The position numbers and the translations under genes are program-made. From Gammaproteobacteria bacterium (lineage in GTDB: Bacteria > Pseudomonadota > Gammaproteobacteria > Pseudomonadales > Azotimanducaceae): DNA of 64,000 nucleotides. The stretch covers positions 1-64,000 of the forward strand of contig JAJFKA010000131.1 in the NCBI GenBank assembly GCA_021773555.1, given 5' to 3'. Below, piece by piece: positions 5,810 to 22,567 of this stretch. The notes beneath the pieces are model-generated. The model saw nothing but the letters and a program-made list of their open reading frames with translations, was not told the DNA's origin and searched no databases. Position 1 is the stretch's first letter. Every line of letters begins with the position of its first letter.

Positions 5810-5904
5810 TTTTATTCTCCCCAATCTGGTCGGCCTATTATCCATGCTTTAGGCGGAAAGGAAAATTGACCGTGTGTCTGACCGCAATATTTTTTCATTC
5901 ACCA

Positions 5905-6495: not shown

Positions 6496-6632
6496 GGACG
6501 TCACAACGGTAGCGGATAATCCGCTCGATTCAATCAGAGCAGTTGCGTGAAATCAAACGGATTTCGAACTAGCTCTGGATTGCTGCACCAACTCTTGGCA
6601 TATTAGGCCTCGAGCAGAATCAGGAGCAGAAG

Positions 6633-7718
6633 ATGAAAGCAGCAGTATTCAGAGAGGTGGGACAACCGCTGGAAGTCGAAGAGATCTCTATTTCCAAACC
6701 AGGTCCAAGAGAAGTACTTATCCGAACGGCCGCAGCGGGTGTTTGCCACAGTGACCTGCATTTTGTGGAGGGACTCTATCCCGCGGTGACGCCAATGGTC
6801 CTTGGTCATGAGTCTGCTGGAATAGTTGAGCAGGTGGGTTCATCGGTAACTTATGTGAAACCGGGAGATCATGTCATTACCTGTTTATCGGTGTTTTGCG
6901 GTCACTGTGAACAATGCCTTACCGGGCACATGTCCCTATGCGCCAGCCCCGAAGTCAGACGTGGACCGGGTGATGAATCCCGGTTATCCCAGAACAGTGT
7001 CCCGGTGCAGCAGTTCGCCAATCTGTCATCTTTTGCGGAGCAAATGCTGGTTCATGAACATGCGATCGTCAAGATTCGCGAGGACATGCCACTTGACCGG
7101 GCAGCCCTCATCGGATGCGGTGTAACGACCGGAGTGGGTTCGGTATTCCACACCGCGAAAGTTGAACCCGGTAGTACCGTCGCAGTGATTGGTTGTGGCG
7201 GGGTCGGTTTGTCCTGCATTAATGGTGCTGCACTCGCGGGTGCAGGAAGAATAATTGCCATTGATATGGTCGCGAGCAAGCTGGAAATGGCCAAGGTCTT
7301 TGGTGCGACTGACGTGGTAAACGGTAATGATGGCGATCCCGTCGAACAGGTCCGTGAATTGACAGGCGGGGGAGTCAGCTATTCCTTTGAAGCCATCGGA
7401 TTGAAGCTAACTGCCGAGCAGGCGTTCAGTATGTTACGTCCTGGAGGTACTGCAACCATCATTGGTATGATCCCGGTCGGCGTAAAGATTGAATTGACTG
7501 GATCGGCATTCCTGCAGGAAAAGAAGATACAGGGTTCGATGATGGGATCGAATCGATTCCGCATTGATATGCCACGTTTTATTGATTTTTACCTGGCGGG
7601 TAAGCTGCATCTGGACGAAATGGTTTCGAAGCGGATATCACTGGGTGACATCAATACCGCGTTTGCGGATATGAAATCCGGATCGGTTGCGCGCAGCGTC
7701 ATCTTGTTTGATCAGTAG
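6633..7718 (+). CDS. Zinc-dependent alcohol dehydrogenase (class III-like MDR)
   Basis: 361 residues of a medium-chain zinc dehydrogenase. Catalytic zinc ligands are Cys38 (GVCHSD), His59 with Glu60 (GHE) and Cys162 (GCGVTTG). The structural zinc loop has Cys89, Cys92, Cys95 and Cys103. The NAD-binding loop GCGGVG is at 187-192, followed by an acidic residue (IAIDM) that favours NAD over NADP. It resembles the class III / formaldehyde-type branch, but the alcohol oxidised is not deducible. AGGAG precedes the ATG with good spacing. It converges with the TM2 gene. Confidence 0.92.
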   Translation: MKAAVFREVGQPLEVEEISISKPGPREVLIRTAAAGVCHSDLHFVEGLYPAVTPMVLGHESAGIVEQVGSSVTYVKPGDHVITCLSVFCGHCEQCLTGHMSLCASPEVRRGPGDESRLSQNSVPVQQFANLSSFAEQMLVHEHAIVKIREDMPLDRAALIGCGVTTGVGSVFHTAKVEPGSTVAVIGCGGVGLSCINGAALAGAGRIIAIDMVASKLEMAKVFGATDVVNGNDGDPVEQVRELTGGGVSYSFEAIGLKLTAEQAFSMLRPGGTATIIGMIPVGVKIELTGSAFLQEKKIQGSMMGSNRFRIDMPRFIDFYLAGKLHLDEMVSKRISLGDINTAFADMKSGSVARSVILFDQ

Positions 7719-7728
7719 CATCAGGCGA

Positions 7729-8013
7729 CTATTGCTTGCGGAGTTTTTGGTGTAACGCCTCGAACTCGTCTTCCAGATCATCAATGCGATCAAAGAGCTC
7801 AGATTCGTGCTCGTCGTAAATGTTGTCGTTACAGATATCGACCTGCTCGCGCAAGGTGAACAGGTCGATGATCCAGCCAACTACGAACAATCCAGCCGTG
7901 AACAAATACAACAGGGCTAGAAATGGCCGTCGCAAATAGAGCTTGTGTGCGCCAAGCAGGCCCAGGAAAAAACAGAGAATGTAGGCAACGAGCGTACTTT
8001 TTTGCGCAGCCAT
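7729..8013 (-). CDS. TM2-domain membrane protein
   Basis: 94 residues. The N-terminal half has the TM2 fold: a first membrane segment (about 8-22) with a GLLGAHKLYL loop, then a second segment (about 30-50) ending in an acidic WIIDLF. The C-terminal 35 residues are acidic and heptad-like, suggesting a short coiled coil (ELFDRIDDLEDEFEALHQKL). TM2 proteins sit in the inner membrane and have no general assigned role. The start is one base after the stop of the ferritin-like gene, so the two are co-translated. Confidence 0.85.
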   Translation of the reverse strand: MAAQKSTLVAYILCFFLGLLGAHKLYLRRPFLALLYLFTAGLFVVGWIIDLFTLREQVDICNDNIYDEHESELFDRIDDLEDEFEALHQKLRKQ

Positions 8014-8014
8014 A

Positions 8015-8638
8015 CTATTTTACCGCGCGTACTTTTGATTTCGGAACGCCCGCAGTCGCCTGCAAATCACTGACTATTTCGATTAACTTGTGAAGCTGTA
8101 ACTGGATGTCAGCCAGTGCTGGCAGCGAAGCATTTACCGTGGCCTGTTCGTCCAGATTTTTTGGGGCTGCGCCGGGCTCCGCTGTCTCAATCAGGGCCTG
8201 GGTAATCTGGTTCGCTTCACGCAGGATGCGGCCGGAATCTCGCTCTTCCGCGATGAACCTGCCGAGAAGCGCGGCAGTCTGGGGGTCGATTGATTGATCG
8301 GCCAGCAATTTCAGCAGTCGATCCTCACCTTCCTCGGGTGGCTGGCCGACACCGAGTTGTTCGAATTTGTCCTTATCGGTCAGATTCGAGCTGGCGATTT
8401 CCATCGTCGTCTTGAATTTTGGATCTTTTTTGCGCTCCAGGGGAAAGCCGAGTTCCCATAGTCGTTTTTCGAAGGTCGCGGCATGTTCTGCCTCGCGAAG
8501 CGCAACCATTTTTAACCGACTGGCGAGATCTGCGTTCGGGGTTACCTCGGACCAGGCATTCAGGAAAGCGTAACCCCGTCGTTCGCCATTCACGATGGCA
8601 TTCAGCGTGCCAAGATAAGTGGGTTTTTTCAGACTCAT
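8015..8638 (-). CDS. Ferritin-like domain protein
   Basis: 207 residues from the ATG at 8638, which has AGGAGA at good spacing; an in-frame TTG directly upstream is less likely. The helical N-terminal half carries metal-binding-type spacing: a Glu in NGERRGYAFLNAW, then REAEHAATFEKRL (ExxH), then AEERDSGRIL later. This is the pattern of ferritin-like or rubrerythrin-like four-helix proteins, although a full di-iron set cannot be proven by eye. The C-terminal 60 residues are low complexity and helical. It is probably cytoplasmic and co-transcribed with the TM2 gene. Confidence 0.6.
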   Translation of the reverse strand: MSLKKPTYLGTLNAIVNGERRGYAFLNAWSEVTPNADLASRLKMVALREAEHAATFEKRLWELGFPLERKKDPKFKTTMEIASSNLTDKDKFEQLGVGQPPEEGEDRLLKLLADQSIDPQTAALLGRFIAEERDSGRILREANQITQALIETAEPGAAPKNLDEQATVNASLPALADIQLQLHKLIEIVSDLQATAGVPKSKVRAVK

Positions 8639-8679
8639 CAACGTCTCCTGGATAGGAATGGCCCATCATAACGCCGATC

Positions 8680-9312
8680 TCAGGGGTTGGCATCCTCTTC
8701 CTTTAGTCGGATCAGACTCGTATTAGCGGGGAATTTGCCTGAAATGGGCTGGTAGAAAGCGCGAATACGGTCCATATCAGTCGCTGGATCACCTGAGGGT
8801 ACAAATGTCAGACCCAGTCCGGCAGTCTTCGTTTTGTAATCCAGGTACCCGCAAACCAGCGGTATACCTGTCTCAACGGCGATTCTGTAAAAACCAGACC
8901 GCCAGTGATCCGTCTTCCTGCGCGTACCGGCAGGCGGGATTACCAGTGCAATGTGATCCGAGTTGCGAATGGTCTCCGCGAGGTGCTGAACCATGTTGGT
9001 ACTCCGGGACCGATCGACTGGGACGCCGCCCAGGTATTTAAGGAAGGCACCAAACACCGGGAAAAACAGATTGTTCTTACCCAGCCAGTTAACGCTCAGG
9101 CGCAGGGAATAGGCAGCGCCCAGTAGAAATATAAAGTCCCAGTTACTGGTGTGTGGTGCGGCGATGATGACCATCCTGGTGCTGTCCGGTACTCGACCTT
9201 CCACGTTCCACCCGCATAGCTTCATCACGGTGAGTCCCAGCAGGTGGGCGAACAGGTTACAGCGTCCCCCGACGCGATTTGTCGGCAGATGTTGCGTATC
9301 AGGGGGCTTCAT
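8680..9312 (-). CDS. PlsC-type 1-acyl-glycerol-3-phosphate acyltransferase family protein
   Basis: 210 residues. The HX4D acyltransferase motif is HTSNWD (His54-Asp59). The substrate-binding block GGVPVDRS is at 95-102 and the third block is IPPAGTR (125-131). In most family members the third block is EGTR, so the Glu is replaced by Ala128 here. Such proteins transfer acyl chains to lysophospholipids or related acceptors at the inner membrane. The start overlaps the stop of the upstream flavoprotein gene by 4 bp (ATGA), which implies translational coupling. Confidence 0.8.
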   Translation of the reverse strand: MKPPDTQHLPTNRVGGRCNLFAHLLGLTVMKLCGWNVEGRVPDSTRMVIIAAPHTSNWDFIFLLGAAYSLRLSVNWLGKNNLFFPVFGAFLKYLGGVPVDRSRSTNMVQHLAETIRNSDHIALVIPPAGTRRKTDHWRSGFYRIAVETGIPLVCGYLDYKTKTAGLGLTFVPSGDPATDMDRIRAFYQPISGKFPANTSLIRLKEEDANP

Positions 9313-10799
9313 GCTGAGAGCGACCGGTAAGACGCTGCATGTTCACCGGCGATTTTTCCGAATACCGCACCGGAGGTTAATCCGGTTCCGCCGGGGTAGT
9401 TGAAATAGAACAATCCGCCCACCAGTTCACCCGCGGCGAACAATCCGGGAATGGGCGAGCCTTCTTCTGTCAGGACCTCGGCCGCTTCGTTGATCCGAAT
9501 ACCACCAAAGGTGAAGGTAATCCCGCAGGTGATCTGATAGGCGGCGAATGGTGGTGTATCCAGGGGATTGGCCCAGTTGGTCTTGTTGATGGGCAGACCG
9601 GTCGTGCCCCTGCCATCCTTGATGGCAGGATTAAAAACCACATCCGGGTTCACCGCGGCGTTGAATTCCATTAACGTCTGCAGGCATCGGGTTTGATCCA
9701 CACCTTCCATTTTCGCGACCAGTTCCGCTAATGTATCAGCTTGTACCCGGGTGACCTCCCTGATCCGGTACTCGTCGCGGAGCAGGTCAGCAACCCGGGC
9801 ATCGAACACCTGCCAGGCGAACTGCTCAGGCTGGTTGAGGATCTCCCTGCCATAACGCGCATAGGTATAATTTCGAAAGTCGGCGCCCTCATCGACAAAT
9901 CGTTCGCCACGGGCGTTGACCATCACTCCAAGGGGATAACTGTGTTTCTGAAATCCATCTCCGACTGAAAGGTCCCCGAATTCAGGCGCGTTCCGGTCCC
10001 AACCCACCGCGTGACAGCCCGACCAGTGGCCATAGGGGGCAGCACCTGCATTCAGCGCCATGCGGATACCATCGCCGGTGTTAAACCGTGTGCCGCGCAC
10101 TTTTGCGAGTTCCCAGCCGGGTCCGAGATATCGGGTTCGCCATTCAGGATTGGCTTCGAATCCACCGCTGGCAAGAACGATCGCGTCGCAGGAAAGGTTT
10201 TTTGTCTTGCCCGCATGTTTTACAGAAATGCCGTTAATCCCGGCGTCATCGACGTTTAACGCCAATGCCCGGCAATCACAAATAATATTGATTCCTGCCT
10301 TCGTGGCCAGGCTATGCAGGCTCTCGACCAATCCGGGACCTCCGCCCCAGGCCTCAACGGTAAGTCCACCCCAGAACTTGAAGCGACCGTCTACCTTGAA
10401 CGCCTGCCGACCGTACATGGGCATAAAACGAACACCCCGGTCATGCATCCAGCGAAGCGTCGGGTAACTCTGCTCCACCAGTATTTCCGTCAGCACCGGA
10501 TCACTCCGATATTGGGTCAGTCGACCCATGTCGTCATAAAAATTGTCCCGGGTGTAGCTGCCAAAATCCGTACTCCTGATCTCGTCGTCCCCAAGTTCAG
10601 GCATGAGCGCGATCAGGTCTTCGACGCCGTTGTAAACGAATCGCATGGCACCGGCGGTATACCTGGAGTTTCCGCCTTTTTCGGCATCGGGTGCGCGTTC
10701 CAGTATAGTTACACTGGCACCTTTATCTCTGGCAGCCAGCGCAGCGCAAAGCGCAGCATTCCCTGCGCCAACGACGATAACTTCGTGGGGTTGATTCAT
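9309..10799 (-). CDS. FAD-dependent oxidoreductase, tricarballylate dehydrogenase (TcuA)-like
   Basis: 496 residues from the ATG at 10799. An upstream in-frame start would add 66 residues of non-protein-like sequence ahead of the FAD-binding strand and is rejected. The N-terminus EVIVVGAGNAALCAALAARDKGA is the dinucleotide-binding fold. NSRYTAGAMRF and the C-terminal GELVGGLFYFNYPGGTGLTSGAVFG are typical of the fumarate reductase / succinate dehydrogenase flavoprotein branch that includes TcuA and 3-ketosteroid dehydrogenases. It should catalyse FAD-linked dehydrogenation of an organic acid or similar compound. It overlaps the acyltransferase gene and is divergent from the CHAT gene. Confidence 0.86.
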   Translation of the reverse strand: MNQPHEVIVVGAGNAALCAALAARDKGASVTILERAPDAEKGGNSRYTAGAMRFVYNGVEDLIALMPELGDDEIRSTDFGSYTRDNFYDDMGRLTQYRSDPVLTEILVEQSYPTLRWMHDRGVRFMPMYGRQAFKVDGRFKFWGGLTVEAWGGGPGLVESLHSLATKAGINIICDCRALALNVDDAGINGISVKHAGKTKNLSCDAIVLASGGFEANPEWRTRYLGPGWELAKVRGTRFNTGDGIRMALNAGAAPYGHWSGCHAVGWDRNAPEFGDLSVGDGFQKHSYPLGVMVNARGERFVDEGADFRNYTYARYGREILNQPEQFAWQVFDARVADLLRDEYRIREVTRVQADTLAELVAKMEGVDQTRCLQTLMEFNAAVNPDVVFNPAIKDGRGTTGLPINKTNWANPLDTPPFAAYQITCGITFTFGGIRINEAAEVLTEEGSPIPGLFAAGELVGGLFYFNYPGGTGLTSGAVFGKIAGEHAASYRSLSA

Positions 10800-10995
10800 T
10801 ACGTTGATGTTCTGCTGGCGCGTTGAAGGTGCAATGTAGCATTGCGAGAATGACTGAATCCAGTAGCCGTGTAAATGTGAGAAGATACAGCAGGTGCACC
10901 TGTTCAGACCGATAATCACACAGCGATTGATAAAGGCTGTGTAATGAGGTAGGAATAGACCCAAGAACAACTCAACTATCCGGGCCAGTGTCATC

Positions 10996-13900
10996 ATGAT
11001 TAAGCGATTCTTGACTCTCTATTTAATCACGCTCTCTTTGTTTTGCTGGAATCCGGTATCCGCCGATCAGATTCGTGATGCTGCTGACCAGGCACTAATG
11101 TCTGGCGATATGGATCTGGCACTTGAACTGTTTATGGAGGTTCTTGAGAGTGATCCTGAAAATATCGAAGTGATGCAGGTTATCGCGATGCTGGCGCAGG
11201 AATCCGGGATCCCCGAACTCGGTGTGCAGATGTTGCAGGGCCAGATCGAATTGCTTGTCAGTCGAGGTGATCGGGAAGCCATTGCGGTCGTCAACGATGA
11301 AGTCTCGGCATTAACGTCGGCATTACCCGACTGGGTGACGGAACGGCTGGCTGCCGCCAGCCGGATTGATTCGGATGGTGAGGAAATCATCGCTGGGTAC
11401 GATGAGATGCATCTTGAAGCCGAGTCGCTGATGACCGCGGGCGATTTCGAATCAGCATTGGCCGCGCAGGAAAGTGCGCTGGTACTCGTCACCGAAATGC
11501 TCGGTGGGGGGCACTGGTTGACCGCTGCGGCGACGCGTGATCTTGGTTTTATCTATCGACAGATGGGCGACGCCGAAGCGGCGGATGCCTTTTACAATGA
11601 GGCCATTGCACTGGCCACCGTGAGCCTGGGAGAGGAACACCCTGAGACCATCCAGATATATGAACTTCTGGCTGAGTTGTATCGTGCTGTGGGAGCAACG
11701 GATGAAGCGCTTGCGCTAAGCGATATGATTGTCGCGAGTCTCGCAGAGAGTTTTGGGCAGAGCCATGAACTAACAGTAAACGCACGCATGAATCAAATTG
11801 CCGGGCTTGAACAGAGCGGCCAGTTCGAAGATGCGCGAAACCTGATGGAAATGGTCTGTGAGCTTGTGGACCAGGATTATGGTTCATGGCATCCCGTCGT
11901 GATTGACTGTCTGTTGCAACAGGCGAGGCTCGCCAGCGCAGCCGATGACATTGCGGCAGCCGGCAGCTACTACCAGATTGCGATTCAGCGGATGGCGGAG
12001 TCGTATACGACTGTCAATAGTGAAGTCCTGCTCGCACTGACACAGTCTGCGGAAATCTATCGCGAACAGGGTGAATATCTCAAAGCCCGGCAACTTCTCG
12101 CTTCTGTTATTCAGACCGCATTGCAGATGGGGGATTCGGAACTTGGTTACCTGGCCCGATCCTATCTAGGTCGTGTTTTTAACAACGAGGGAGATCTGGT
12201 TCGCGCCCAGGCAATCACCGAGCAGGTTCTGGATTATGGTCTGGCTAACTGGCTGGATCGACCCATTGACATCTACAATACCCTGCTTGAGCTTGGTTCA
12301 GTCTATCAGCGCCAGGGTAAATTCGCGGAGGCCGAGGCCAGCTACCGGCAAGCACTTGAAGGTTTGATGGACGTAGCGGGTATGCAACACCCATCGACAC
12401 TGGTGGCGCTCAATAATCTGGGCCAGGTATTCGAAGAAGTCGGACTATATGACCAGGCAGAGCCTTTACTGAAGCAAGCACTCGGGAGCCTGGAAGAAAC
12501 GCTGGGTGTCGACAGCCAACAGACTTCCCGGGCGAGAAATAATCTTGCCCTGTTGTATGAGAGCCAGGGTAACTTTCGAGAGGCTGAGCCGCTCTATACA
12601 GAGAGCCTCGCGATACTCGGTGAGACCCGCGGTGATGATTACACGGACACCATCGCAGTAAAAAATAACCTGGCTTTTCTCTATATGCTCATGGAAGAGT
12701 ACGACCAGTCAGCAGAACTGTTTGAAGAAGTTCACGCTCAGTGGTCGCAACTGTTTGGTGATGAACATCAGTTCACGATGAAAGCCCTGAACAATCTGGG
12801 CAGAATCTACCAGAAACAACAAAAAGTTGATCAGGCTACTGAGATTTTTGTTCGTGCACTGGCCTCGCGGCGATCGGTGCTCGGTGAGTCGCACCCGGAT
12901 GTGATTCGATCGATGATTGACCTCGGATCTGCTTACGTTGATGCGGATAATCTGGTGCAGGCAAGGACAACCCTGACGGCAGCACTCGCGCTGGCTGAGA
13001 AAGTGCTGGGTGAACAACACCCCTACACATTCGAAGCGCTGAACAATCTGGCCAGGTTGTACAGGGTTGAAGGTAATTTGGATGCAGCAATCGAGTTGAG
13101 TGGCACAGGATTTCAACGACGCAGTCAGTTTCTCGATAGGATGTTGTGGGTTACGGGAGAAAATGCGCGAGAAGGTTACGTGCGCCTGCATCGACCTGAA
13201 TTTGACAATTACCTGGCGATGCTCACTAAAACTGATTCAAGTGCCGGTGGTCGGCGAGCGCTGGGTGCAAGTTTGCAACGCAAGGGATTGCTGTTGAAAG
13301 TTACCTCAGAGATTCAGCAGATTTCACAGCTTGCGGGTGACCCGGCATTGACGGCTGTCGCGAATGAACTGGAAACCGCACGAAAGGAATTGGCTGCGCT
13401 AACCCTGTCGGGGCCGACCATAGAGACTCAAGGCAGACACGCGGAGGCGCTCTACGATCTGGAACAATCCGTTAATGAATTGCAGGGCGAACTCGGCAGA
13501 GCCAGCGTTCGCTATCGAAGCTCAATCGCACAGATTGATGTCGATTCCCTCGCCTCTGTGTTGCCTCCGGGATCGGCACTAGTCGATTTTCTGGCCTACG
13601 AGGAGCAGGGTGCGCTCCGATACCTGGCGGGAGTTGTCATTAATGATGGCTCGTCGATTCGATTCGAGCTGGTTAAATTTTCGAACCGAGAGCAGATGGA
13701 AGCAGCGGTGCTTTACTACCGGCAAATCATCCAGGATGACCAGGCCGATGAGGATGAACTTGTGGAAGCGGGACAGACAGCGTATGAACTCGTCTGGCAG
13801 CCGGTCGCTGACCTGATTGAAGGCATTGAATACGTTTATCTGATTCCCGATGGGGTACTGAATATTTTGCCCTTTAATGCTCTGGTCGACCCGGATGAAA

Positions 13901-14823
13901 AATACCTTATCCAGACTCACGACATACATATACTGACTTCTGGTCGAGACCTGCTGCCGAACGAATACAAGGTGGCGAAGGGGGAATATGTAATTCTGGC
14001 CGGTCCCGACTACAATTCGGAAGACGTTGTCGACAAGCAGGTGCTGGCTGCGGCACGAGGTCGCAGATCGACGACACTGCAGATGGACATTCGTGGTGCA
14101 GGCGGCGGATTACGTGGTTTGAATTTTGCGCCCTTACCAGGCGCAGAACGGGAAGGCCGGATTATCACGAATCAGGTCCAGGAGACCGATTCACCGAGTG
14201 AGGTGTTTTTTGGGGCGGATGCTCAGGAACAGGTTTTGTCAAATCTGAAACAACCGCCGGAAATACTGCATATGGCGACCCACGGATTTTTCCTGAAAGC
14301 GGATGATTCCTTACGTAAAAGGTTACTGAAACTGCAACGGGGATCAGATGTGCATGTGCCGCCACCGGGAGACAATCCGCTCTTAAGAGCAGGACTCGCG
14401 TTTGCTGGCATCAATACTAATGCACAATTTCTAGGCGACATTGATACCGTCAATGACGGTGTGCTCACCGCCCTTGAAGTGCTCGACCTGAACCTGTCAG
14501 GCACCAAACTTGTGGTCCTTTCTGCCTGTGAAACGGGCCTGGGCGAAATTCACGAAGGCGAGGGTGTTTACGGTTTGCGTCGCTCCTTTCAGGAGGCAGG
14601 CGTGGCGGAGGTCATCAGTTCTTTGTGGGAGGTCAGTGACGCGGGAACCCAGGCGCTGATGACCAGTTTCTATGAGCGGGTACTCTCGGGCCAGCCAGCC
14701 CGGGAAGCGCTGCGCGACACACAGTTAGACCTCATGGATTCACCTGAATGGGGATATCCGTACATATGGTCAGCATTTATGATCGTCGGAAGTTATGAGT
14801 CTTCAGGCATCACAATTCAGTAA
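10996..14823 (+). CDS. Exported TPR-CHAT domain protein
   Basis: 1275 residues. A signal peptide is visible (MIKRFLTLYLITLSLFCW..SADQ). Residues of about 30-780 are mostly 42-residue kinesin-light-chain-type TPR repeats (recurring ALNNLG.IY.....QA). A helical linker follows, and the C-terminal 300 residues form a CHAT (caspase-like) domain. The expected dyad is His1096 in LHMATHGFF and Cys1178 in LSACETG. CHAT proteins are cysteine peptidases or peptidase-like modules, some activated by partner binding. The signal peptide suggests action in the periplasm or outside the cell. TolC-like and DyP genes follow in the same direction. The start ATG has only a weak Shine-Dalgarno. Confidence 0.9.
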   Translation: MIKRFLTLYLITLSLFCWNPVSADQIRDAADQALMSGDMDLALELFMEVLESDPENIEVMQVIAMLAQESGIPELGVQMLQGQIELLVSRGDREAIAVVNDEVSALTSALPDWVTERLAAASRIDSDGEEIIAGYDEMHLEAESLMTAGDFESALAAQESALVLVTEMLGGGHWLTAAATRDLGFIYRQMGDAEAADAFYNEAIALATVSLGEEHPETIQIYELLAELYRAVGATDEALALSDMIVASLAESFGQSHELTVNARMNQIAGLEQSGQFEDARNLMEMVCELVDQDYGSWHPVVIDCLLQQARLASAADDIAAAGSYYQIAIQRMAESYTTVNSEVLLALTQSAEIYREQGEYLKARQLLASVIQTALQMGDSELGYLARSYLGRVFNNEGDLVRAQAITEQVLDYGLANWLDRPIDIYNTLLELGSVYQRQGKFAEAEASYRQALEGLMDVAGMQHPSTLVALNNLGQVFEEVGLYDQAEPLLKQALGSLEETLGVDSQQTSRARNNLALLYESQGNFREAEPLYTESLAILGETRGDDYTDTIAVKNNLAFLYMLMEEYDQSAELFEEVHAQWSQLFGDEHQFTMKALNNLGRIYQKQQKVDQATEIFVRALASRRSVLGESHPDVIRSMIDLGSAYVDADNLVQARTTLTAALALAEKVLGEQHPYTFEALNNLARLYRVEGNLDAAIELSGTGFQRRSQFLDRMLWVTGENAREGYVRLHRPEFDNYLAMLTKTDSSAGGRRALGASLQRKGLLLKVTSEIQQISQLAGDPALTAVANELETARKELAALTLSGPTIETQGRHAEALYDLEQSVNELQGELGRASVRYRSSIAQIDVDSLASVLPPGSALVDFLAYEEQGALRYLAGVVINDGSSIRFELVKFSNREQMEAAVLYYRQIIQDDQADEDELVEAGQTAYELVWQPVADLIEGIEYVYLIPDGVLNILPFNALVDPDEKYLIQTHDIHILTSGRDLLPNEYKVAKGEYVILAGPDYNSEDVVDKQVLAAARGRRSTTLQMDIRGAGGGLRGLNFAPLPGAEREGRIITNQVQETDSPSEVFFGADAQEQVLSNLKQPPEILHMATHGFFLKADDSLRKRLLKLQRGSDVHVPPPGDNPLLRAGLAFAGINTNAQFLGDIDTVNDGVLTALEVLDLNLSGTKLVVLSACETGLGEIHEGEGVYGLRRSFQEAGVAEVISSLWEVSDAGTQALMTSFYERVLSGQPAREALRDTQLDLMDSPEWGYPYIWSAFMIVGSYESSGITIQ

Positions 14824-14905
14824 TGATTCTCTGGTAAACTGCTTCCGAAGGACGTGACAGAGCAGTTAAAATAACGTCAAAACGTAGGATAGCGGGGGTT
14901 CGTGG

Positions 14906-16204
14906 GTGAATTTTAGATTACTGGTGTTGTTACTCAGCGGGTGTTTGCTCACCCTCATCGTCAATGATACGGCCCGCGCACAATCGCTCATTGAAACTGT
15001 TGGAACGACGCTCAATACAAACCCGGACATTCATGTCGGGCAATATAATGTCGAAGCTGCTGACCAGTTAAGAAAGCAGGCGCGCGGCGGTTACTTCCCC
15101 GTGGTTGATATCGTGCTTGCGACGGGCAAGGAAAATTCGAATAACACGACAACCCGTGCGGCGAATCTCGATGATCTCCGTCTGACCCGGGACGATCGAT
15201 CCATTCGGGTAACCCAGCTTCTGTATGATGGATTTTCCACTCGCAATTTCGTCAAACAACAAACCGCTTTGCTGGACTCAGCGGTTGCGAGGCTGGGCAG
15301 CACTCGCGAAAACGTGAGTCTGCGCGCGATCCAGGTATATCTGGAGGTGTTGAAGCGTGATGCGGTGGTGTCGCTTGCCAGTGAAAATTTACGCCAGCAT
15401 GATTCCACGCTTGGCAAGATACGTGAACGTTTTGAGAGTGGGGTCGGCACCAAGGTTGATGTTGTGCAAACCCAGGGCAGGCGCGCCCAGGCTAAGTCAG
15501 CCGTGATGCTGACCGAACGAGATGCCAAAAATGGCAGGGCTGAATTTTATCGGGTTGTTGGCGAGAATGCGGTTGATCTAGACAATCCAGACCCCATCAC
15601 CGGTTTGCCAGGATCGCTGGGTGAAGCGCTGGAAATAGCCTATCGAAATAATCCGTCTTTGATAGCAGCAGAAGCGGAACTCCAGGCGGCGATCGCATCC
15701 AGAAAACAGGCGCGGGGCAGCTTTCATCCACGACTGGATATTGAACTTGGGGTAACTCGAAATGAGGATGTGGATGGATCCATAGGCGCGAATGATGACG
15801 AGACCGCTGTGGTGCGGATGACCTACAATGTGTTTCGCGGCGGTGCGGATCGTGCTCGCGTCAATGAAACTGAAGCGCGGGAGTTTGCCGCCCGCGAATC
15901 ACTGCGAAGCAATCGTTTGGCGGTTGAAGAAGACGTTACGCTGATCTGGAACGAACTGCAGGACATTCTGATTCGGCTGGAATACCTTAAGGCGCACGTG
16001 GAATCCACCGAGGAAGTTTTGAAAGTTTACAATGAGCAACTGGGCCTGGGTAAACGAACCTTGCTCGATTTGCTGGATGTTCAAAACGAACTGCTTCGAG
16101 CCAGAATCGCCTATCTTTCCGGACAATACACAGCCAGGCTGGCGAGGTACCGGGTTCTGGCCAGTGCTGGACGACTGCTTGATTCCCTGGGGCTCAATAC
16201 CTGA
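14906..16204 (+). CDS. TolC-family outer-membrane protein
   Basis: 432 residues, the usual length. A GTG start at 14906 is followed by a signal peptide (MNFRLLVLLLSGCLLTLIVNDTARAQS). Two repeated OEP-type halves with long alpha-helical hairpins are seen (for example VSLRAIQVYLEVLKRDAVVSLASENL and GKRTLLDLLDVQNELLRARIAYLSGQY), as in type I secretion and efflux channels. It begins 82 bp after the CHAT gene and ends 24 bp before the DyP gene. No adaptor or inner-membrane pump is adjacent, so its partner is either encoded elsewhere or the channel serves the CHAT protein directly, which is speculative. Confidence 0.93.
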   Translation: MNFRLLVLLLSGCLLTLIVNDTARAQSLIETVGTTLNTNPDIHVGQYNVEAADQLRKQARGGYFPVVDIVLATGKENSNNTTTRAANLDDLRLTRDDRSIRVTQLLYDGFSTRNFVKQQTALLDSAVARLGSTRENVSLRAIQVYLEVLKRDAVVSLASENLRQHDSTLGKIRERFESGVGTKVDVVQTQGRRAQAKSAVMLTERDAKNGRAEFYRVVGENAVDLDNPDPITGLPGSLGEALEIAYRNNPSLIAAEAELQAAIASRKQARGSFHPRLDIELGVTRNEDVDGSIGANDDETAVVRMTYNVFRGGADRARVNETEAREFAARESLRSNRLAVEEDVTLIWNELQDILIRLEYLKAHVESTEEVLKVYNEQLGLGKRTLLDLLDVQNELLRARIAYLSGQYTARLARYRVLASAGRLLDSLGLNT

Positions 16205-16228
16205 ACACGTTCTTGTAAGGAAAATATT

Positions 16229-17107
16229 GTGTCGTATCAGTCCGGTATTCTGGATGATGTGCCGGCTCAGGCCCGGTACCTCTATTTTTCATTGTCCAAT
16301 CGAGCCGATCCGACCGAACTTCTGGACGTTCTGCCCGATCTTGTCGACGGCAGGACTGTTGTGCTCGGCATCGGCAAGGCCTTCCTGGACTTAATCGAAA
16401 CTTCCGAGCAACTCATCACAAGTGCGCCGGTGTTTGAGAGCAAGGGTATTGCGATTCCATCCATCCCTTACGCGTTCTGGTTCTGGCTCCGCGGCGATGA
16501 TCGGGGTGAACTGGTAAGGACAACCCTGGCGATTGAGCAGGCCCTGGGTGAGAACGTGCAGCTTGAAGATGTTGTCGACGCATTCAAATTTGACATAGGT
16601 CGCGATCTGTCCGGTTATGTAGACGGAACTGAAAATCCAGAAGGTACCGCCGCTATTGAAGCTGCAATTGCACAAAGCGGATCAGCAGGTAACGGCAGTT
16701 TTGTTGCCGTTCAAAAGTGGTTGCATGATCTCGAAGGATTTTTCCAACTGGATGGCGAGGCGCAGGATGATATTATTGGTCGTCGTCTGGCGGACAATAC
16801 TGAGTTTGACCAAGCCCCTGAATCGGCGCACGTAAAAAGAGCCGCGCAGGAGCGTTTTCAACCGGAGGCATTCATGCTCAGACGCTCAATGCCCTGGGCA
16901 GACTATTCCGGCCAGGGTCTGGTTTTTGTGGCGTTTGGACATAGCTTTGCTGCGTTCGATACCGTGATGCAACATATGCTGGGTATTGATGATGGCGTCA
17001 TTGATGGAATCTTCCAGCTGAGTCGCCCACTGGGAACCAGCTACTTCTGGTGCCCGCCTGTCTTCGAGGGCAAGGTGGATTTGTCAACGATCGGTGCTGT
17101 GCGCTGA
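16229..17107 (+). CDS. DyP-type haem peroxidase
   Basis: 292 residues from a GTG at 16229 behind AAGGAAAA. The family signature GYVDGTENPEG (129-139) contains the distal Asp132. A proximal haem ligand His201 (SAHVKRA) and the distal Arg219 (MLRRSMPW) can be placed by comparison with class B DyPs. Dye-decolourising peroxidases use H2O2 to oxidise dyes, phenols or porphyrins. There is no Tat or Sec signal, so it is cytoplasmic unless carried as cargo, and no encapsulin gene is nearby. It is the last gene of the CHAT/TolC run and converges with an LLM gene 1 bp away. Confidence 0.92.
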   Translation: MSYQSGILDDVPAQARYLYFSLSNRADPTELLDVLPDLVDGRTVVLGIGKAFLDLIETSEQLITSAPVFESKGIAIPSIPYAFWFWLRGDDRGELVRTTLAIEQALGENVQLEDVVDAFKFDIGRDLSGYVDGTENPEGTAAIEAAIAQSGSAGNGSFVAVQKWLHDLEGFFQLDGEAQDDIIGRRLADNTEFDQAPESAHVKRAAQERFQPEAFMLRRSMPWADYSGQGLVFVAFGHSFAAFDTVMQHMLGIDDGVIDGIFQLSRPLGTSYFWCPPVFEGKVDLSTIGAVR

Positions 17108-17108
17108 T

Positions 17109-18020
17109 TCATGAGTTTAAGAACTCCCGGACCTGGGCAAGCCGGACCGTTGAGGCAATCGCTTTGTCGGGATCCCGATGCAGGTTGCGAATGATAATGT
17201 CAGTAAAACCCAATTCCCCGAATGCCTGAAATTGTGACGCGACATCCTCACTGGTGCCAATGATCAGTGCTTCAGGATCGAAGCCACGGTAGCCCTGACT
17301 TGTGATCAGCGCGAGTGTGTCTTGTGCATCTGCTGCTGATTCCGCAACGTATATATCTCGCCGGATCGCCACGGTCGTCGGATTGGCTCTACCGAATGCG
17401 GCGAGGGCAGTGTTGTACTGCTCAAGGGCACGGGCGGCCTGCTCCAGTGTCAGTCCTGGATCGGCGAGCCAGGCGTCTCCTATCCTGGCAGCGCGTTCAA
17501 TGGCGACTGGCGCAGACGCGCCGATCCAGATCTCGATGGGCAGTGGTGGCAGGGGGCAGATCCTGGCCCCTTCGAATGTCCATCGCCCGTCCATGGTGAC
17601 CGATTCACCTGCCCAGAGTGCCCGCATACATTCAATCGCCTGTTCAAATGAAGATGGACGGTGTTTGATGTTGGCACCCATGGCATTGAATTGCTGCCGG
17701 CCTGCACCGAGCCCGCACTGCATGATGAATTTACCCTGGGCGATACATGCCAGAGTGGCGATTTGTTCCGCCGCAAGGACCGGATTCCAGAGTGGCAGTA
17801 GAAATAATGCTCCGGCATCCCGGGAATCCCATTCCGCCAGCAGTCGACCCATCATCGGTGTGTTCTGGTAGTAAGGTGTCGGTACCACGTGGTGATCACC
17901 GACGAAGAGCGAGTCCAGGCCTGCCAGCGCCGCAGCATTGGCGCGATTGATCATCTGGCGTGCACCGTCGCGGACATCTTTTGTCTGGTATGAACTGGTG
18001 ATTGAGATGCCGATACGCAT
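17109..18020 (-). CDS. LLM-class flavin-dependent oxidoreductase
   Basis: 303 residues from the ATG at 18020, supported by AAGGGA; the longer frame begins 12 codons upstream. The N-terminus MRIGISITSSY, the segment FVGDHHVVPTPYYQNTP and the C-terminal GTSEDVASQFQAFGELGFTDIIIRN are characteristic of luciferase-like monooxygenases and F420-linked relatives. The protein forms a TIM barrel that binds FMN or F420. The substrate is unknown. It stands alone between the DyP gene and the Hsp70-like gene. Confidence 0.86.
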   Translation of the reverse strand: MRIGISITSSYQTKDVRDGARQMINRANAAALAGLDSLFVGDHHVVPTPYYQNTPMMGRLLAEWDSRDAGALFLLPLWNPVLAAEQIATLACIAQGKFIMQCGLGAGRQQFNAMGANIKHRPSSFEQAIECMRALWAGESVTMDGRWTFEGARICPLPPLPIEIWIGASAPVAIERAARIGDAWLADPGLTLEQAARALEQYNTALAAFGRANPTTVAIRRDIYVAESAADAQDTLALITSQGYRGFDPEALIIGTSEDVASQFQAFGELGFTDIIIRNLHRDPDKAIASTVRLAQVREFLNS

Positions 18021-18163
18021 TCTGCGTTCCCTTGAGTCAGGTGAATTGAGGATCATTGTAACAATCTCGAAATCGCGCTGGGAATAAACCGGCGAATGTG
18101 CGTTAATTGCAACCCCTTCGGGACTCTGAACTTCTTTAATAATTATATAAATCAGTAGCTTAT

Positions 18164-19570
18164 ATGATTGGTGTGGGTATAGATTTCGGAACTTCGAACT
18201 CGGCTGCTGCCTGGTACGATGGTCAGCGAGTGCATCTTGTTCAGCTTGAACAGGACGATACCATCATGCCTACTGCTACCCACCTGAATCGTGAGCTGGT
18301 AACACGCACGGGTCGTGAGGCGGTGCTGCAGTACATCACCGAGAATCAGGACCGGATAGTTGAACTCACTCCAGAGGTTATTGCGCGAAGTGCCATGGTG
18401 GTTGCCGATGCGCTCGCCGATGATCCACAAAGTGAGGCCGAGATCGCAACTTCCAGCGTCTATGGCCAGCCCTGGGTGGACAGGGGTATGCCGGGCCGCC
18501 TGTTTCGCGGCGTGAAACGTCTGTTAGGTAATCCCGCGATAAAACGCCTGCTTGTTTTTGACCATCCGTTTCGCGTTGTTGCGCTGATCACTCCGGTGTT
18601 GCTGCGCATCCGTCATTCAATTGAGGAGAACCTGAAGGATAGAATCGACGACGTTCATTTTGGCCATCCTGTATTGTTTGAAGGCAATTCACGGGAGCGA
18701 AATGAACTGGCGTTTTCCCGATTAACAGAGGCCTGCCATTATGCCGGAATCGATAAGGTCACTTTCTACCCGGAACCCGTTGCTGCGACGCTAAGTTTTC
18801 TGCATGAAGAAGCCTCAAAAGACAGCGGTCGGGTATTGACCCTGGATTTTGGTGGAGGCACGCTGGATTTAAGTGTCGTCGCGTACTCTGGCGTCGAATT
18901 CAAGGTGTTATCAACAGCTGGCTTGTCATTGGGCGGAGATCATATCGATCAGCTAATCTTTCGCGAACTGTTGTTCCCGCTGCTCGGAAAAGGCGAAATC
19001 TGGTCGAGAGTCAGTGATGGACGACTGATCGAAAATGTATTTCCGTTCGAAGAGTTCGAAGACAAGCTGTTGAACTGGGCGGTAACCTACATTTTGAATC
19101 AGAATCAATATCGTGCCAAGGTCGCTGACTGCATCAGAAAGGGCGGACCCGCGGCCGTAAAATTTGAACGCTTGGATGATCTCATCACCCATAATTACAG
19201 TTATCTGGTTTTTCAGGCGATCAAGGAAGCGAAAGCGCGCTTGTCCAATGATGAGGAGACCATGCTGGATATTCCTGAGCTGGATGTATCGGTGCTGTTC
19301 ACCCGTGACCACTTTGAACTCATGATGAGCGGTATGCTTCGCCAGATTGATGAAATCCTTGATAAGGTACTGCTTGATGCCGACTGTGAGTCCAGCGACA
19401 TCGATAAGGTGATCCGCACGGGGGGATCCAGCCAGATTGCTGCCGTGAAGCGTATCCTCGAAGATAAATTTCCTGGTCGGGTCACGGAGCATGATCCATT
19501 TACGAGCGTGGCGGCCGGACTCGCTATTGCCAGTTATTACCAATATGAGTTTCGTGAAGTCCGCAACTGA
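18164..19570 (+). CDS. Hsp70-family protein without substrate-binding domain (YegD-like)
   Basis: 468 residues. The actin-like ATPase motifs are clear: phosphate 1 DFGTSNS (7-13), phosphate 2 LDFGGGTLDLSV near residue 227, and the adenosine motif RTGGSSQIAAVKRIL near 420. Length and the absence of a beta-sandwich domain match YegD-type Hsp70 proteins, whose function is poorly known. The start ATG at 18164 lies in AT-rich sequence (TTAATAATTATATAAAT upstream) with no visible Shine-Dalgarno, so translation may be leaderless or weak. The gene is followed 25 bp later by an AhpD-like gene. Confidence 0.9.
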   Translation: MIGVGIDFGTSNSAAAWYDGQRVHLVQLEQDDTIMPTATHLNRELVTRTGREAVLQYITENQDRIVELTPEVIARSAMVVADALADDPQSEAEIATSSVYGQPWVDRGMPGRLFRGVKRLLGNPAIKRLLVFDHPFRVVALITPVLLRIRHSIEENLKDRIDDVHFGHPVLFEGNSRERNELAFSRLTEACHYAGIDKVTFYPEPVAATLSFLHEEASKDSGRVLTLDFGGGTLDLSVVAYSGVEFKVLSTAGLSLGGDHIDQLIFRELLFPLLGKGEIWSRVSDGRLIENVFPFEEFEDKLLNWAVTYILNQNQYRAKVADCIRKGGPAAVKFERLDDLITHNYSYLVFQAIKEAKARLSNDEETMLDIPELDVSVLFTRDHFELMMSGMLRQIDEILDKVLLDADCESSDIDKVIRTGGSSQIAAVKRILEDKFPGRVTEHDPFTSVAAGLAIASYYQYEFREVRN

Positions 19571-19595
19571 TATCAATGGAAAGGAAGGGAACAGG

Positions 19596-20177
19596 ATGGA
19601 AGAATTAGAGCGGCGAATCAGTCGGTTCGACTTGCCAGTGCTTGACGAGTTGCCAGGTGACATCAGAGAGAGAATCGAGTCTGTTCATTCGAAATCTGGC
19701 TTCATCCCGAATGTATTCCTGCTGCTGGCACGGCGACCGGCAGAGTTTCGCGCTTTTTTTGCCTACCACGACGCACTCATGGAGGGTAACTCCGGACTGT
19801 CAAAGGCCGAACGCGAGATGATCGTTGTCGCGACATCGGCAATGAACGACTGTCAGTATTGTGTGATTGCCCATGGCGCGGTCCTGCGTATTCGTGCGCG
19901 CAATCCATTAATTGCGGATCAGGTGGCGACCAATTATCACAAAGCAGACTTGACCGATCGTGAACAGGCGATGTTAAAACTGGCGCTGCGGATAGCATCC
20001 AGCGCGGCAGAGTTGAGTGATGCTGAGTTGCAGGAAGCACGGCAGGCCGGCTTTGATGAGGAGCAGCTCTGGGACATTGGGGCGATTGTTGCTTTTTTCG
20101 CGATGAGTAACCGCATTGCTAATTATTCAAGCTTGAGACCTAATGATCAGTTTTATGAGATGGGTAGATCGAGTTGA
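19596..20177 (+). CDS. Carboxymuconolactone decarboxylase / AhpD-like peroxidase-related protein
   Basis: 193 residues from the ATG at 19596, which follows AAGGAAGGGA; in-frame starts further upstream overlap the Hsp70 gene. The redox motif CQYCVIAHG has Cys86, Cys89 and His93, the same arrangement as the catalytic site of AhpD alkylhydroperoxidases. KSGFIPNVFLLLARRP at the N-terminus is typical of the peroxidase-related subgroup. It probably acts in peroxide or thiol redox chemistry in the cytoplasm. It is likely co-transcribed with the Hsp70-like gene. Confidence 0.87.
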   Translation: MEELERRISRFDLPVLDELPGDIRERIESVHSKSGFIPNVFLLLARRPAEFRAFFAYHDALMEGNSGLSKAEREMIVVATSAMNDCQYCVIAHGAVLRIRARNPLIADQVATNYHKADLTDREQAMLKLALRIASSAAELSDAELQEARQAGFDEEQLWDIGAIVAFFAMSNRIANYSSLRPNDQFYEMGRSS

Positions 20178-20225
20178 GCGTCGAACACTTTAAACCATTG
20201 GCGCGTGCCGAGCGTCTAATTGGCA

Positions 20226-20888
20226 ATGCAGGCAAGGTACCGTGGCTCGCGCGATAAAAGCGTTTCGCGGGGAATGGATTTGCCTAAACAGGCTTCTGTT
20301 CAGAGTCGAAGTAAACCTCCATCGAGAAAAAGCAGTTTTGTGGCAGAGTTGACACAGCCCGTGGACTACGACGAAAAACACCTCGTCGATCTGGCCCGAA
20401 AAAATGACTACAGTGCTTACGAGCAACTGTACAGGATTCATGTGGGCCGGGTTTTTGCTCAGTGTGTTCGCTTGTGTCGCGATCGCGATCTGGCTGAGGA
20501 TCTCGCTCAGGAAGCCTTTGTACAGGCCTGGTTGAAGCTTTCGAGCTTTCGTGGGGACAGTGCATTTGGCAGTTGGTTGTATCGAATTGCCACCAATATC
20601 ACGTTAAGCCATCTGCGCCGTCAAACTCCGTTCAAAAACAGCCTGGAACTCGAGGATGTGCCTGAGCTTGAATATCGAGAAACCACTGATGAACAAATCG
20701 GGCTCGAGCAGGCCATCTCGGAATTGCCTGACGGAGCCAGGGCGGTATTCGTGTTATACAGCCTTGAGGGTTACACCCATGACGAGATAGCCGGGATGCT
20801 GGGCATCGCGCAGGGCAGTAGTAAAGCGCAACTGCATCGGGCGCGACAACTGTTACAGCAGAAACTGTCCGTTGAACCGGGGGCATAA
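20226..20888 (+). CDS. ECF-type RNA polymerase sigma factor
   Basis: About 220 residues from the ATG at 20226; a TTG at 20220 and an ATG at 20274 are other possible starts, and the N-terminal 45 residues are low complexity, so the start is uncertain. Region 2 is YEQLYRIHVGRVFAQC through LAEDLAQEAFVQAWLKL and GSWLYRIATN. Region 4 is LPDGARAVFVLYSLEGYTHDEIAGMLGIAQGS with the helix-turn-helix. There is no accessory domain. It lies 50 bp ahead of a one-TM anti-sigma-like gene and a DUF4097 gene, an arrangement seen for envelope or stress sigma factors. Confidence 0.92.
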   Translation: MQARYRGSRDKSVSRGMDLPKQASVQSRSKPPSRKSSFVAELTQPVDYDEKHLVDLARKNDYSAYEQLYRIHVGRVFAQCVRLCRDRDLAEDLAQEAFVQAWLKLSSFRGDSAFGSWLYRIATNITLSHLRRQTPFKNSLELEDVPELEYRETTDEQIGLEQAISELPDGARAVFVLYSLEGYTHDEIAGMLGIAQGSSKAQLHRARQLLQQKLSVEPGA

Positions 20889-20938
20889 ACCAATTTCAGC
20901 CAGGGTGCGTCTAATCAGACAAATGAGGAATCTATGCA

Positions 20939-21487
20939 ATGAGCACTGAGATCCATCGGGAAAACAACGGCGAATCCGATGCCTTGTCGATGACACTGGC
21001 CCGTGAGATTCGAGCACTTGATGCTGAAATTCAGCCCTCGAGAGACCTGTGGCGAGGGATCGAGCGTCGCATGCTGGATCATCCGCAGAAGGCGCCTGGT
21101 GGCTTTAGTCTTAACTGGCTTTCCTACGGTGTCGCAGCAAGTCTTATAGTTGGCACGACGGCGTTGATGGTGAGCCTGTGGCAGCCAATCACGCAGGAGA
21201 CCCAGGTACTGACGGCAGACCGGTCGTTCAATCAGATGGAAGCCGAATATGTGCAGCTTCGTAATCCGCTGGTTAAGAAGTTTACCGAGTTGAACAGCGA
21301 CCTTGATGAACAGACACTTGATGAGCTGTATCGGAATCTTGATATCCTCGAATCAGCCCGGCGGGATATAGAGGCGCAGGTGCGGGAAGCTCCGTCGAAT
21401 CGTCGCCTAATCGAAACATTGATGCGAATACACGAACAGGAACTGGAACTTCTTAAACAGGACTTCACCAGGAACCGCATGATGTGA
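20939..21487 (+). CDS. Probable anti-sigma factor, single membrane segment
   Basis: 182 residues. The N-terminal 55 residues are cytoplasmic-type and acidic (SALSMTLAREIRALDAEIQPSRDLWRGIERRM), one membrane helix follows (about 62-82), and the rest is a charged helical periplasmic region ending in MM. This topology and the position directly after the sigma gene suggest the cognate anti-sigma factor. No HxxxCxxC zinc motif is visible, so it is not a classical ZAS protein. Function is inferred mainly from context. Confidence 0.7.
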   Translation: MSTEIHRENNGESDALSMTLAREIRALDAEIQPSRDLWRGIERRMLDHPQKAPGGFSLNWLSYGVAASLIVGTTALMVSLWQPITQETQVLTADRSFNQMEAEYVQLRNPLVKKFTELNSDLDEQTLDELYRNLDILESARRDIEAQVREAPSNRRLIETLMRIHEQELELLKQDFTRNRMM

Positions 21488-21554
21488 GGGCCTGGTGCAG
21501 GCACCGCAGGCGGTATCGATAAGACGCGTGAAAAGAGATGATTGAGGCAACAAC

Positions 21555-22493
21555 ATGAACAGAAATAGATTACTACTCTGCATTGTCTGTATGACAATGG
21601 CAGTCCCGGGTCTGGCGGCGCGGCAGGAAGTGAATCAGATCGAACCTGCATCGATGGATGGTTTGGTTCGTATTCAGATTGTTCGCGGTGAACTCGAAGT
21701 GATTGGCTGGGAGAAACCTTCTGTGCAGGTTACCGGCATGCTCGATGAACGCATGGAGGAATTTATCTTCAACGCGGACGGAGGCGCCACCAGAATAGAA
21801 GTAAAGTTACCCAGGGTGCATCGTGGCGGAAGCGAGGGATCGGATCTGCGTGTGTATATTCCATCGAGGAGTCGATTGAATATTTCCGGGGTCGCCACTG
21901 ATGTTTCTGCCAGGGGTGTTGATGGCAGCATTGAGGTTGGCGTGGTAAGTGGGGACATCGAGCTAAAAGGAGGTACGGATCGAGTTATCCTGCAGACAGT
22001 CAATGGCGACATTGATATTCGCGACTCGTCAGGTCGGATCCGCGTCAAGACAGTAAGTGGGGATATTGAATCCTATAACACCGAGGGTGATAGCAGGTAC
22101 GGCAGTGTCAGCGGGGATTTGCTGGTGGAAAACGGGGGCAGTGATCTGGACCTCGAATCGGTTTCCGGGAATGTCGAGGTTGAACGGACCAGATTTTCAC
22201 GCATCAATGGTCATTCAGTTTCAGGTGATATAAGAATCAACGGCGGTCTCATGCAGGGCGGTTCTCTTGAGTTTGATAATGTCAGCGGGTCGATCCGTGT
22301 AGAACTCGGAGGCGAAATAGACGCACGATTTGATCTGGAATCCGGGTCTGGGAGCATCCGTAACCGGCTGACTGATGATAAACCAGAGTCTTCAAAATAT
22401 ATTCGTGACAAGACCCTGCGATTTTCAGTGGGAGACGGGTCCGGTGTTGTGATACTCAATACGCGCTCTGGTGATATCTCGATTTCAAAATAA
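21555..22493 (+). CDS. Exported DUF4097-family beta-strand repeat protein
   Basis: 312 residues with a signal peptide (MNRNRLLLCIVCMTMAVPGLAARQ). The mature part is made of short repeated strands with S(V/T)SGDI-type turns about every 20 residues (VVSGDIEL, VNGDIDIR, TVSGDIES, SVSGDLLV, SVSGNVEV, SVSGDIRI, NVSGSIRV), forming a beta-helix-like solenoid. This is DUF4097/YvlB-type sequence, often linked to envelope-stress operons. It is the third gene of the sigma/anti-sigma set and is likely its output or sensor. Its molecular role is unknown. Confidence 0.85.
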   Translation: MNRNRLLLCIVCMTMAVPGLAARQEVNQIEPASMDGLVRIQIVRGELEVIGWEKPSVQVTGMLDERMEEFIFNADGGATRIEVKLPRVHRGGSEGSDLRVYIPSRSRLNISGVATDVSARGVDGSIEVGVVSGDIELKGGTDRVILQTVNGDIDIRDSSGRIRVKTVSGDIESYNTEGDSRYGSVSGDLLVENGGSDLDLESVSGNVEVERTRFSRINGHSVSGDIRINGGLMQGGSLEFDNVSGSIRVELGGEIDARFDLESGSGSIRNRLTDDKPESSKYIRDKTLRFSVGDGSGVVILNTRSGDISISK

Positions 22494-22567
22494 AATTAGC
22501 AGCGAAGAATAGCCTTCACTTCCCCGAGTCTGTATAAAACAGTCTGACTTTCTGCCTCGTTCCTTGT

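What the first reader, a model, noticed from the sequence alone, without database searches (positions are those of the whole stretch)
10996..17107. Exported TPR-CHAT protein in a gene run with a TolC-like channel and a DyP peroxidase
Seen: three co-directional genes with gaps of 82 and 24 bp; a signal peptide on the CHAT protein; a His1096/Cys1178 dyad; no adaptor or pump gene beside the TolC homologue. Known: CHAT proteases are usually cytoplasmic, and TolC usually works with an adaptor and an inner-membrane pump. Inference: a periplasmic or surface-directed protease-peroxidase system, possibly defence- or stress-linked.
Basis: partly seen in the sequence, partly recalled or inferred. Interest (0 to 1): 0.65.

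Follow-up and report, generated by a model that had tools for sequence, protein, structure and literature searches.

The report
Exported caspase-like protease beside secretion channel
A bacterium carries the gene of an exported caspase-like protease next to the gene of the outer-membrane pore of a protein secretion machine whose other two parts lie elsewhere in its genome; the peroxidase gene that follows looks like an occasional passenger.

Summary
In detail: three same-strand genes (gaps 82 and 24 bp), a signal peptide, an intact His1096/Cys1178 dyad, no pump or adaptor beside the TolC homologue. The three-gene system does not: DyP lacks an export signal, is absent from the 4 same-genus genomes searched and is near CHAT in 5 of 40 related gammaproteobacterial loci. 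CHAT-then-TolC is conserved (34 of 40). The TolC is of the type I secretion subfamily, and its missing partners exist: an HlyB-HlyD pair stands alone on another contig. Of 151 family genomes, 31 of 32 with this TolC have that HlyB, against 5 of 119 without. In two genera TolC and the unlinked HlyB are missing together while CHAT stays. The CHAT half is predicted to fold like Craspase TPR-CHAT and separase. Best reading: a split type I secretion system whose channel gene is paired with an exported caspase-like protease, possibly doing a LapG-like job. That last step is inferred; five genomes keep a close CHAT without the channel. No defence link beyond a generic TPR match.

The parts
10996..14823 (+). 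gene of exported TPR-CHAT cysteine protease (1275 aa)
   Evidence: predicted folds
10996..11064 (+). signal peptide of the CHAT protein (residues 1-23, cleavage site read by eye)
   Evidence: sequence; hydropathy across homologues with control
13765..14793 (+). CHAT domain (residues 924-1266)
   Evidence: Pfam PF12770, E 5.9e-76; position
14281..14283 (+). codon of catalytic His1096
   Evidence: invariant in 61 of 61 covering rows
14527..14529 (+). codon of catalytic Cys1178
   Evidence: invariant in 61 of 61 covering rows
14906..16204 (+). gene of TolC-family outer-membrane channel of the type I secretion subfamily (432 aa)
   Evidence: TIGR01844 286 vs 225 bits; co-occurrence with HlyB
16229..17107 (+). 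gene of DyP-type peroxidase without signal peptide (292 aa); adjacent but judged an accessory passenger
   Evidence: TIGR01413 178 vs 100.5 bits; patchy presence
18164..19570 (+). Hsp70-like gene, conserved flank of the block, not claimed as part of the module
   Evidence: Pfam HSP70; present downstream in 32 of 40 related loci

Best explanation
The locus is a two-gene module: an exported TPR-CHAT cysteine protease and the outer-membrane channel of a split type I secretion system. The inner-membrane ATPase (HlyB, LssB type) and the adaptor (HlyD) are an isolated gene pair elsewhere in the genome. CHAT carries a Sec-type signal; its TPR superhelix would bind a partner or substrate, and its separase/Craspase-like domain would cut with an invariant His/Cys dyad. 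Inferred: in the periplasm it cuts or controls a protein that passes through, or stays lodged in, this channel, as LapG does to LapA-type adhesins (recalled). DyP is a cytoplasmic passenger. Shown by sequence: export signal, intact dyad, TolC subfamily, TolC-HlyB co-occurrence, DyP not conserved. Inferred only: periplasmic residence, assembly of this TolC with HlyBD (likely), and protease action on the secretion system (about 0.4).
For: CHAT-TolC order in 34 of 40 loci, always same strand with CHAT first. All 32 TolC+ genomes of 151 have CHAT. TolC scores as type I and groups with type I TolCs of the order, 87/95. HlyB in 31 of 32 TolC+ against 5 of 119 TolC- genomes. Within genus g2 (G005, G081, G112 have all three; G062, G097 CHAT only) and g25 (G074, G106 all three; G028, G091 CHAT only) TolC and the unlinked HlyB vary together. 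No TolC match beside HlyB-HlyD in 15 further HlyB loci. DUF4915, between CHAT and TolC in 6 of 34 loci, also lies in one run with an RTX/FG-GAP protein, HlyB and HlyD in G047. LapG absent in 9 of 10 TolC+ genomes. Fold: Craspase TPR-CHAT Z 27.2, separase Z 22.4.
Against: CHAT persists without this TolC in five genomes with a close CHAT (G028, G062, G091, G097, G119), so it does not need the channel. The whole block is syntenic (Hsp70-like gene in 32 of 40 loci), so adjacency is weak evidence. LapG is also absent from 35 of all 58 genomes, and present in one TolC+ genome, G005. No RTX or TIGR03661 cargo in the window's genome, so the cargo is unknown. G023 has TolC but no HlyB; G006, G149, G154 have HlyB but neither TolC nor CHAT at the thresholds used. 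Co-occurrence p-values ignore kinship. Active-site stretches of both models have low pLDDT.
Confidence: 0.45

Rival explanations
1. CHAT is a free-standing periplasmic signalling or stress protease. The type I channel gene is merely its neighbour in a slowly rearranging block and works with HlyBD independently of CHAT.
For: CHAT without TolC or the conserved HlyB in G028, G062, G091, G097. Diverged homologues near MtxA in 11 of 24 loci, with a CHASE2-cyclase in 8 of them. Block synteny. DdvA, titled a transmembrane anti-sigma factor in the PDB, holds a CHAT fold (Z 17.6).
Against: 0 of 32 TolC genes of this type occur in a genome without CHAT; same strand, median gap about 108 bp in 28 loci.
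Confidence: 0.37
2. The TolC is an efflux channel and CHAT a stress protease; HlyB co-occurrence is clade structure only.
For: TolC homologues serve many pumps (general knowledge); a distant match to efflux models; co-occurrence statistics ignore kinship.
Against: Type I cut-off passed, efflux models far below theirs; joint absence of TolC and HlyB within two genera.
Confidence: 0.08
3. A phage-defence module with CHAT as a suicide protease.
For: CHAT effectors occur in conflict systems (PMC10907252, passages); Craspase-like fold.
Against: PADLOC gave only a generic TPR match; conserved chromosomal block rather than a patchy island; export signal.
Confidence: 0.05
4. One reading: CHAT, TolC and DyP act together as a periplasmic or surface protease-peroxidase system.
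For: Three tight same-strand genes in the window; DyP near CHAT in 5 of 40 loci, twice without TolC.
Against: DyP has no signal peptide and is absent from the 4 same-genus genomes that keep CHAT-TolC.
Confidence: 0.03

Closest known systems
Lap-type system: LapEBC type I secretion with the periplasmic protease LapG (P. fluorescens)
   Same: TolC-family type I channel, LssB/LapB-type ATPase and HlyD adaptor in the genome, and an exported cysteine protease in play
   Different: Protease is a TPR-CHAT protein, not LapG family (PF06035 absent from the window's genome); channel and pump unlinked; no RTX cargo found
E. coli type: hlyB-hlyD with tolC encoded elsewhere
   Same: Outer-membrane factor encoded away from the pump, as reviewed in PMC8277102 (passages)
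   Different: Here the channel gene is paired with a protease gene, and no toxin gene lies with hlyB-hlyD
Craspase TPR-CHAT (Csx29)
   Same: TPR plus two-part CHAT protease fold, Z 27.2 for the CHAT half
   Different: Csx29 is an intracellular CRISPR partner (recalled); this one has a signal peptide and no CRISPR gene beside it in the ORF list
DdvA, CHAT-bearing transmembrane anti-sigma factor (PDB 8rot, 8rw5; titles only)
   Same: CHAT fold in a membrane-linked protein
   Different: No anti-sigma domain found in the window protein by Pfam
MtxA / CHASE2-cyclase loci of magnetotactic bacteria
   Same: Carry a TPR-CHAT homologue, mostly with a signal-like N-terminus
   Different: Partners are MtxA and a cyclase, not this TolC

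Membership tests
CHAT proteases (PF12770) | Pfam CHAT model over its cut-off | tested here: met
   256 vs 24 bits
CHAT proteases (PF12770) | catalytic His and Cys present | tested here: met
   61 of 61 covering rows
CHAT proteases (PF12770) | proteolytic activity | not testable with these tools
   needs a bench assay
Type I secretion outer-membrane channel (TIGR01844) | model over its cut-off | tested here: met
   286.1 vs 225.15 bits
Type I secretion system | ATPase and HlyD adaptor in the same genome | tested here: met
   TIGR03375 940.6 vs 693.1; TIGR01843 402 vs 208.65; in 31 of 32 TolC+ genomes for the ATPase
Type I secretion system | cargo with RTX repeats or VCA0849-type C-terminus (common, not universal) | tested here: not met
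   no match in the window's genome
Type I secretion system | physical assembly of the three parts and export of a cargo | not testable with these tools
   needs a bench assay
LapG-type release system | protease of family PF06035 | tested here: not met
   no match in the window's genome
LapG-type release system | periplasmic protease cutting a channel-retained adhesin | not tested
   functional analogy only; cargo unknown
Craspase (type III-E CRISPR) | TPR-CHAT fold | tested here: met
   Z 27.2, rmsd 4.5, 372 aligned
Craspase (type III-E CRISPR) | Cas7-11/gRAMP and CRISPR beside it | tested here: not met
   no such gene among the ORFs read at 5000-24000 and the Pfam hits of ten of them; rest of genome not searched for it
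DyP peroxidases | TIGR01413 over its cut-off | tested here: met
   177.9 vs 100.5 bits

The most novel reading that the evidence does not exclude
A caspase/separase-fold protease governs type I secretion at the outer-membrane pore, doing LapG's job in bacteria that have a stand-alone HlyB-HlyD pair and no recognisable RTX cargo. It would be a second, unrelated protease recruited to that job, with an unknown class of cargo.
Probability: 0.3. Interest if true: 0.75.

Novelty: new variant of a known kind. Interest (0 to 1): 0.5.

Why it matters
Exported caspase-like proteins of bacteria have few assigned roles. This locus gives one a concrete, testable partner, a type I secretion channel, and points to a secretion system whose cargo is unknown. 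Relatives of the same exported family sit with other envelope partners (MtxA and a CHASE2 cyclase; CHAT domains also occur in two-partner secretion exoproteins), which hints at a wider envelope role for caspase-fold proteases.

Tried and rejected
Three genes as one unit: rejected, DyP is patchy and has no signal peptide. Efflux channel: disfavoured. RTX cargo: none in the window's genome; weak single matches in G002, G003, G004, G025 and G031, 18 in G005. TIGR03661 cargo: none in the 37 genomes of the window's family among the 58. Cargo gene beside HlyB-HlyD: none recognised in 13 of 15 further loci; the 41% paralogues in L243 and L249 are followed by a large ORF. Promoter and terminator scan: counts at shuffle level and no terminator-like site in either gap, so co-transcription is open. 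Sequence search of the DUF4915 protein in the PDB: nothing useful. Papers on TIGR03032 or DUF4915: 0. Papers with both 'CHAT domain' and 'periplasmic': 3 listed, one of them seen in passages. DdvA: 569 papers held two of three terms, the 8 listed have no 'ddva', so DdvA is known here from PDB titles only. (whole model) is dominated by TPR proteins, hence the second model. No family absent from the list is excluded. A deeper test of the co-occurrence on a species tree was not run.

Full report
What is there. Three co-directional genes lie at the stated coordinates: a 1275-residue TPR-CHAT protein, a 432-residue TolC-family protein and a 292-residue DyP peroxidase, with gaps of 82 and 24 bp (families). 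The upstream FAD-dependent dehydrogenase gene runs the other way, so CHAT is the first gene on its strand. No terminator-like site lies in either gap. The window lies on contig C37 of a 5.2-Mb, 194-contig assembly, 99% complete. G+C of the three genes is 53%, as in the window.

The CHAT protein. It begins with a Sec-type signal peptide, read by eye. A hydropathy score finds a comparable stretch in 30 of 30 usable gammaproteobacterial homologues and 19 of 22 usable others (misses L138, L150, L168), against 38 of 1100 internal control stretches; 12 of 64 loci were left out because they begin at a contig edge or read under 1000 aa. His1096 and Cys1178 are invariant in 61 of 61 rows that cover them (4 of 65 rows do not). 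The TPR part resembles kinesin light chain. The CHAT half (residues 701-1275) was predicted at mean pLDDT 72.9 and matches Craspase TPR-CHAT (Z 27.2, rmsd 4.5, 372 aligned), separase (Z 22.4, rmsd 4.2, 384), DdvA (Z 17.6, rmsd 3.7, 318) and gingipain (Z 14.2, rmsd 3.9, 267). The active-site stretches have low pLDDT, so the geometry is not shown.

Gene order in relatives. A scan of named genome contigs gave 64 loci. By title and neighbours I sorted them into 40 gammaproteobacterial ones (OM182, K189A, Pseudomonadales and the like) and 24 others (19 Magnetococcales, 3 Magnetospirillum, 2 Rhodospirillaceae). Of the 40, 34 have this TolC downstream of CHAT; of the 6 without, L121 and L170 end at the contig edge, and L123, L124, L125 and L155 lack it in the sequence held. 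In the 28 with nothing recognised between them, the distance between tblastn ends is 27-273 bp, median 107.5. DUF4915 (TIGR03032) sits between CHAT and TolC in the other 6. DyP is near in 5 of 40 (L118, L123, L127, L155, L167), twice without TolC. In the 58 nearest genomes DyP matches in 9, and in none of the 4 of the same genus. The Hsp70-like gene downstream is present in 32 of 40, so the pair lies in a block of conserved order, and adjacency alone is weak evidence of joint function.

The channel and its partners. The TolC passes the type I secretion cut-off (TIGR01844, 286 vs 225 bits) and falls far below those of efflux models. In a tree of 33 rows it groups with type I TolCs of the order (87/95, not the program's highest grade), apart from other TolCs; long branches make deep joins unsure. 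The genome has a second, distant TolC-like protein on C17. On contig C103 HlyB (TIGR03375, 941 vs 693 bits) and HlyD (TIGR01843, 402 vs 209) stand side by side. In 15 further HlyB loci no ORF of 90 aa or more matches either TolC query beside the pair; two of the 15 (L243, L249) hold a 41% paralogue and L250 is a short contig with HlyB alone. A channel encoded away from its pump is known, as tolC of E. coli (PMC8277102, passages).

Co-occurrence. In 151 genomes of the family at 85% completeness or more, TolC (E<=1e-60) is in 32, HlyB (E<=1e-130) in 36 and CHAT (E<=1e-100) in 49. Both TolC and HlyB 31, TolC only 1 (G023), HlyB only 5 (G006, G117, G119, G149, G154), neither 114; Fisher p 7e-26, which ignores kinship. 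In G117 the CHAT gene runs to the contig edge, and the G119 HlyB is a 41% match. All 32 TolC genomes have CHAT. Of the 17 CHAT genomes without TolC, 6 have a close CHAT (G028, G062, G091, G097, G119, and G117 cut by the contig end) and 11 a diverged one; neighbours were read in 2 of those 11 (G013: MtxA and CHASE2-cyclase; G030: CHASE2-kinase and PP2C). In genus g2, G005, G081 and G112 have all three genes and G062 and G097 CHAT alone; in g25, G074 and G106 have all three and G028 and G091 CHAT alone. G091 and G097 are 86-87% complete, so an assembly gap is possible there; G062 is 99% complete and its locus (L124) runs straight from CHAT to the Hsp70-like gene. Since HlyB and TolC are unlinked, this joint absence is the best evidence that they work together. 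CHAT without them shows that CHAT can act alone. In the 58-genome search with the broader HlyD family, 25 pass the cut-off, including G006, G015, G016, G032 and G034 of this family without this TolC.

What CHAT may do. LapG (PF06035) is absent from 9 of 10 TolC+ genomes (present in G005), though 35 of all 58 lack it. DUF4915 also lies in one run with an RTX/FG-GAP protein, HlyB and HlyD in G047, which ties it to type I secretion. These facts suggest, without proof, that CHAT handles cargo of this system from the periplasm, as LapG does in Lap systems (recalled; only a search listing seen). The cargo is unknown. The rival, a free-standing periplasmic signalling protease, is nearly as likely; it rests on CHAT-only genomes and on the MtxA partnership, seen in 11 of 24 non-gammaproteobacterial loci. 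The MtxA paper (PMC4439547, passages) tells of mtxA and the cyclase gene and has no occurrence of 'CHAT'.

Verdict. Observation confirmed, interpretation partly supported. DyP drops out; CHAT-TolC stays; the pump is found elsewhere. The statement that the pair is undescribed rests on paper searches and 79 of an open-access library that lacks most subscription papers.

Noticed in passing
L052:448-5775 (-) and L051:4739-8470 (+): In two relatives a CHAT domain is the C-terminal part of a protein that begins with a two-partner secretion (TPS) domain; a gene clustering with ShlB lies beside it.
   Followed up: partly
L049:4188-13763 (window genome, contig C114): A second CHAT protein of the window's genome is followed by a ShlB-type transporter with a SPOR domain and a large TPS-domain protein.
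   Followed up: partly
L145, L150, L152, L156, L168; also L151, L161, L169: TPR-CHAT homologues form a same-strand run with MtxA and a CHASE2-cyclase: MtxA-cyclase-CHAT in five alphaproteobacterial loci, CHAT-MtxA-cyclase in three Magnetococcales loci.
   Followed up: partly
L195 (G047:C402), 2-6542: DUF4915/TIGR03032, a family of unknown function, lies in a run with an RTX/FG-GAP protein, HlyB and HlyD.
   Followed up: partly
L241, L247, L251 and similar HlyB loci: Genes with Sel1 repeats and a VWA/CoxE-like domain recur beside the stand-alone HlyB-HlyD pair.
   Followed up: no
L243:9341-19901 and L249:8385-16434: A second, 41% similar HlyB-HlyD pair in two genomes is followed by a large ORF whose N-terminus recalls LapA-type adhesins (recalled resemblance).
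   Followed up: no
window 20220-22493: ECF sigma factor gene, a likely anti-sigma gene and a DUF4097 gene follow the locus; the sigma gene recurs downstream of CHAT-TolC in other genomes.
   Followed up: no
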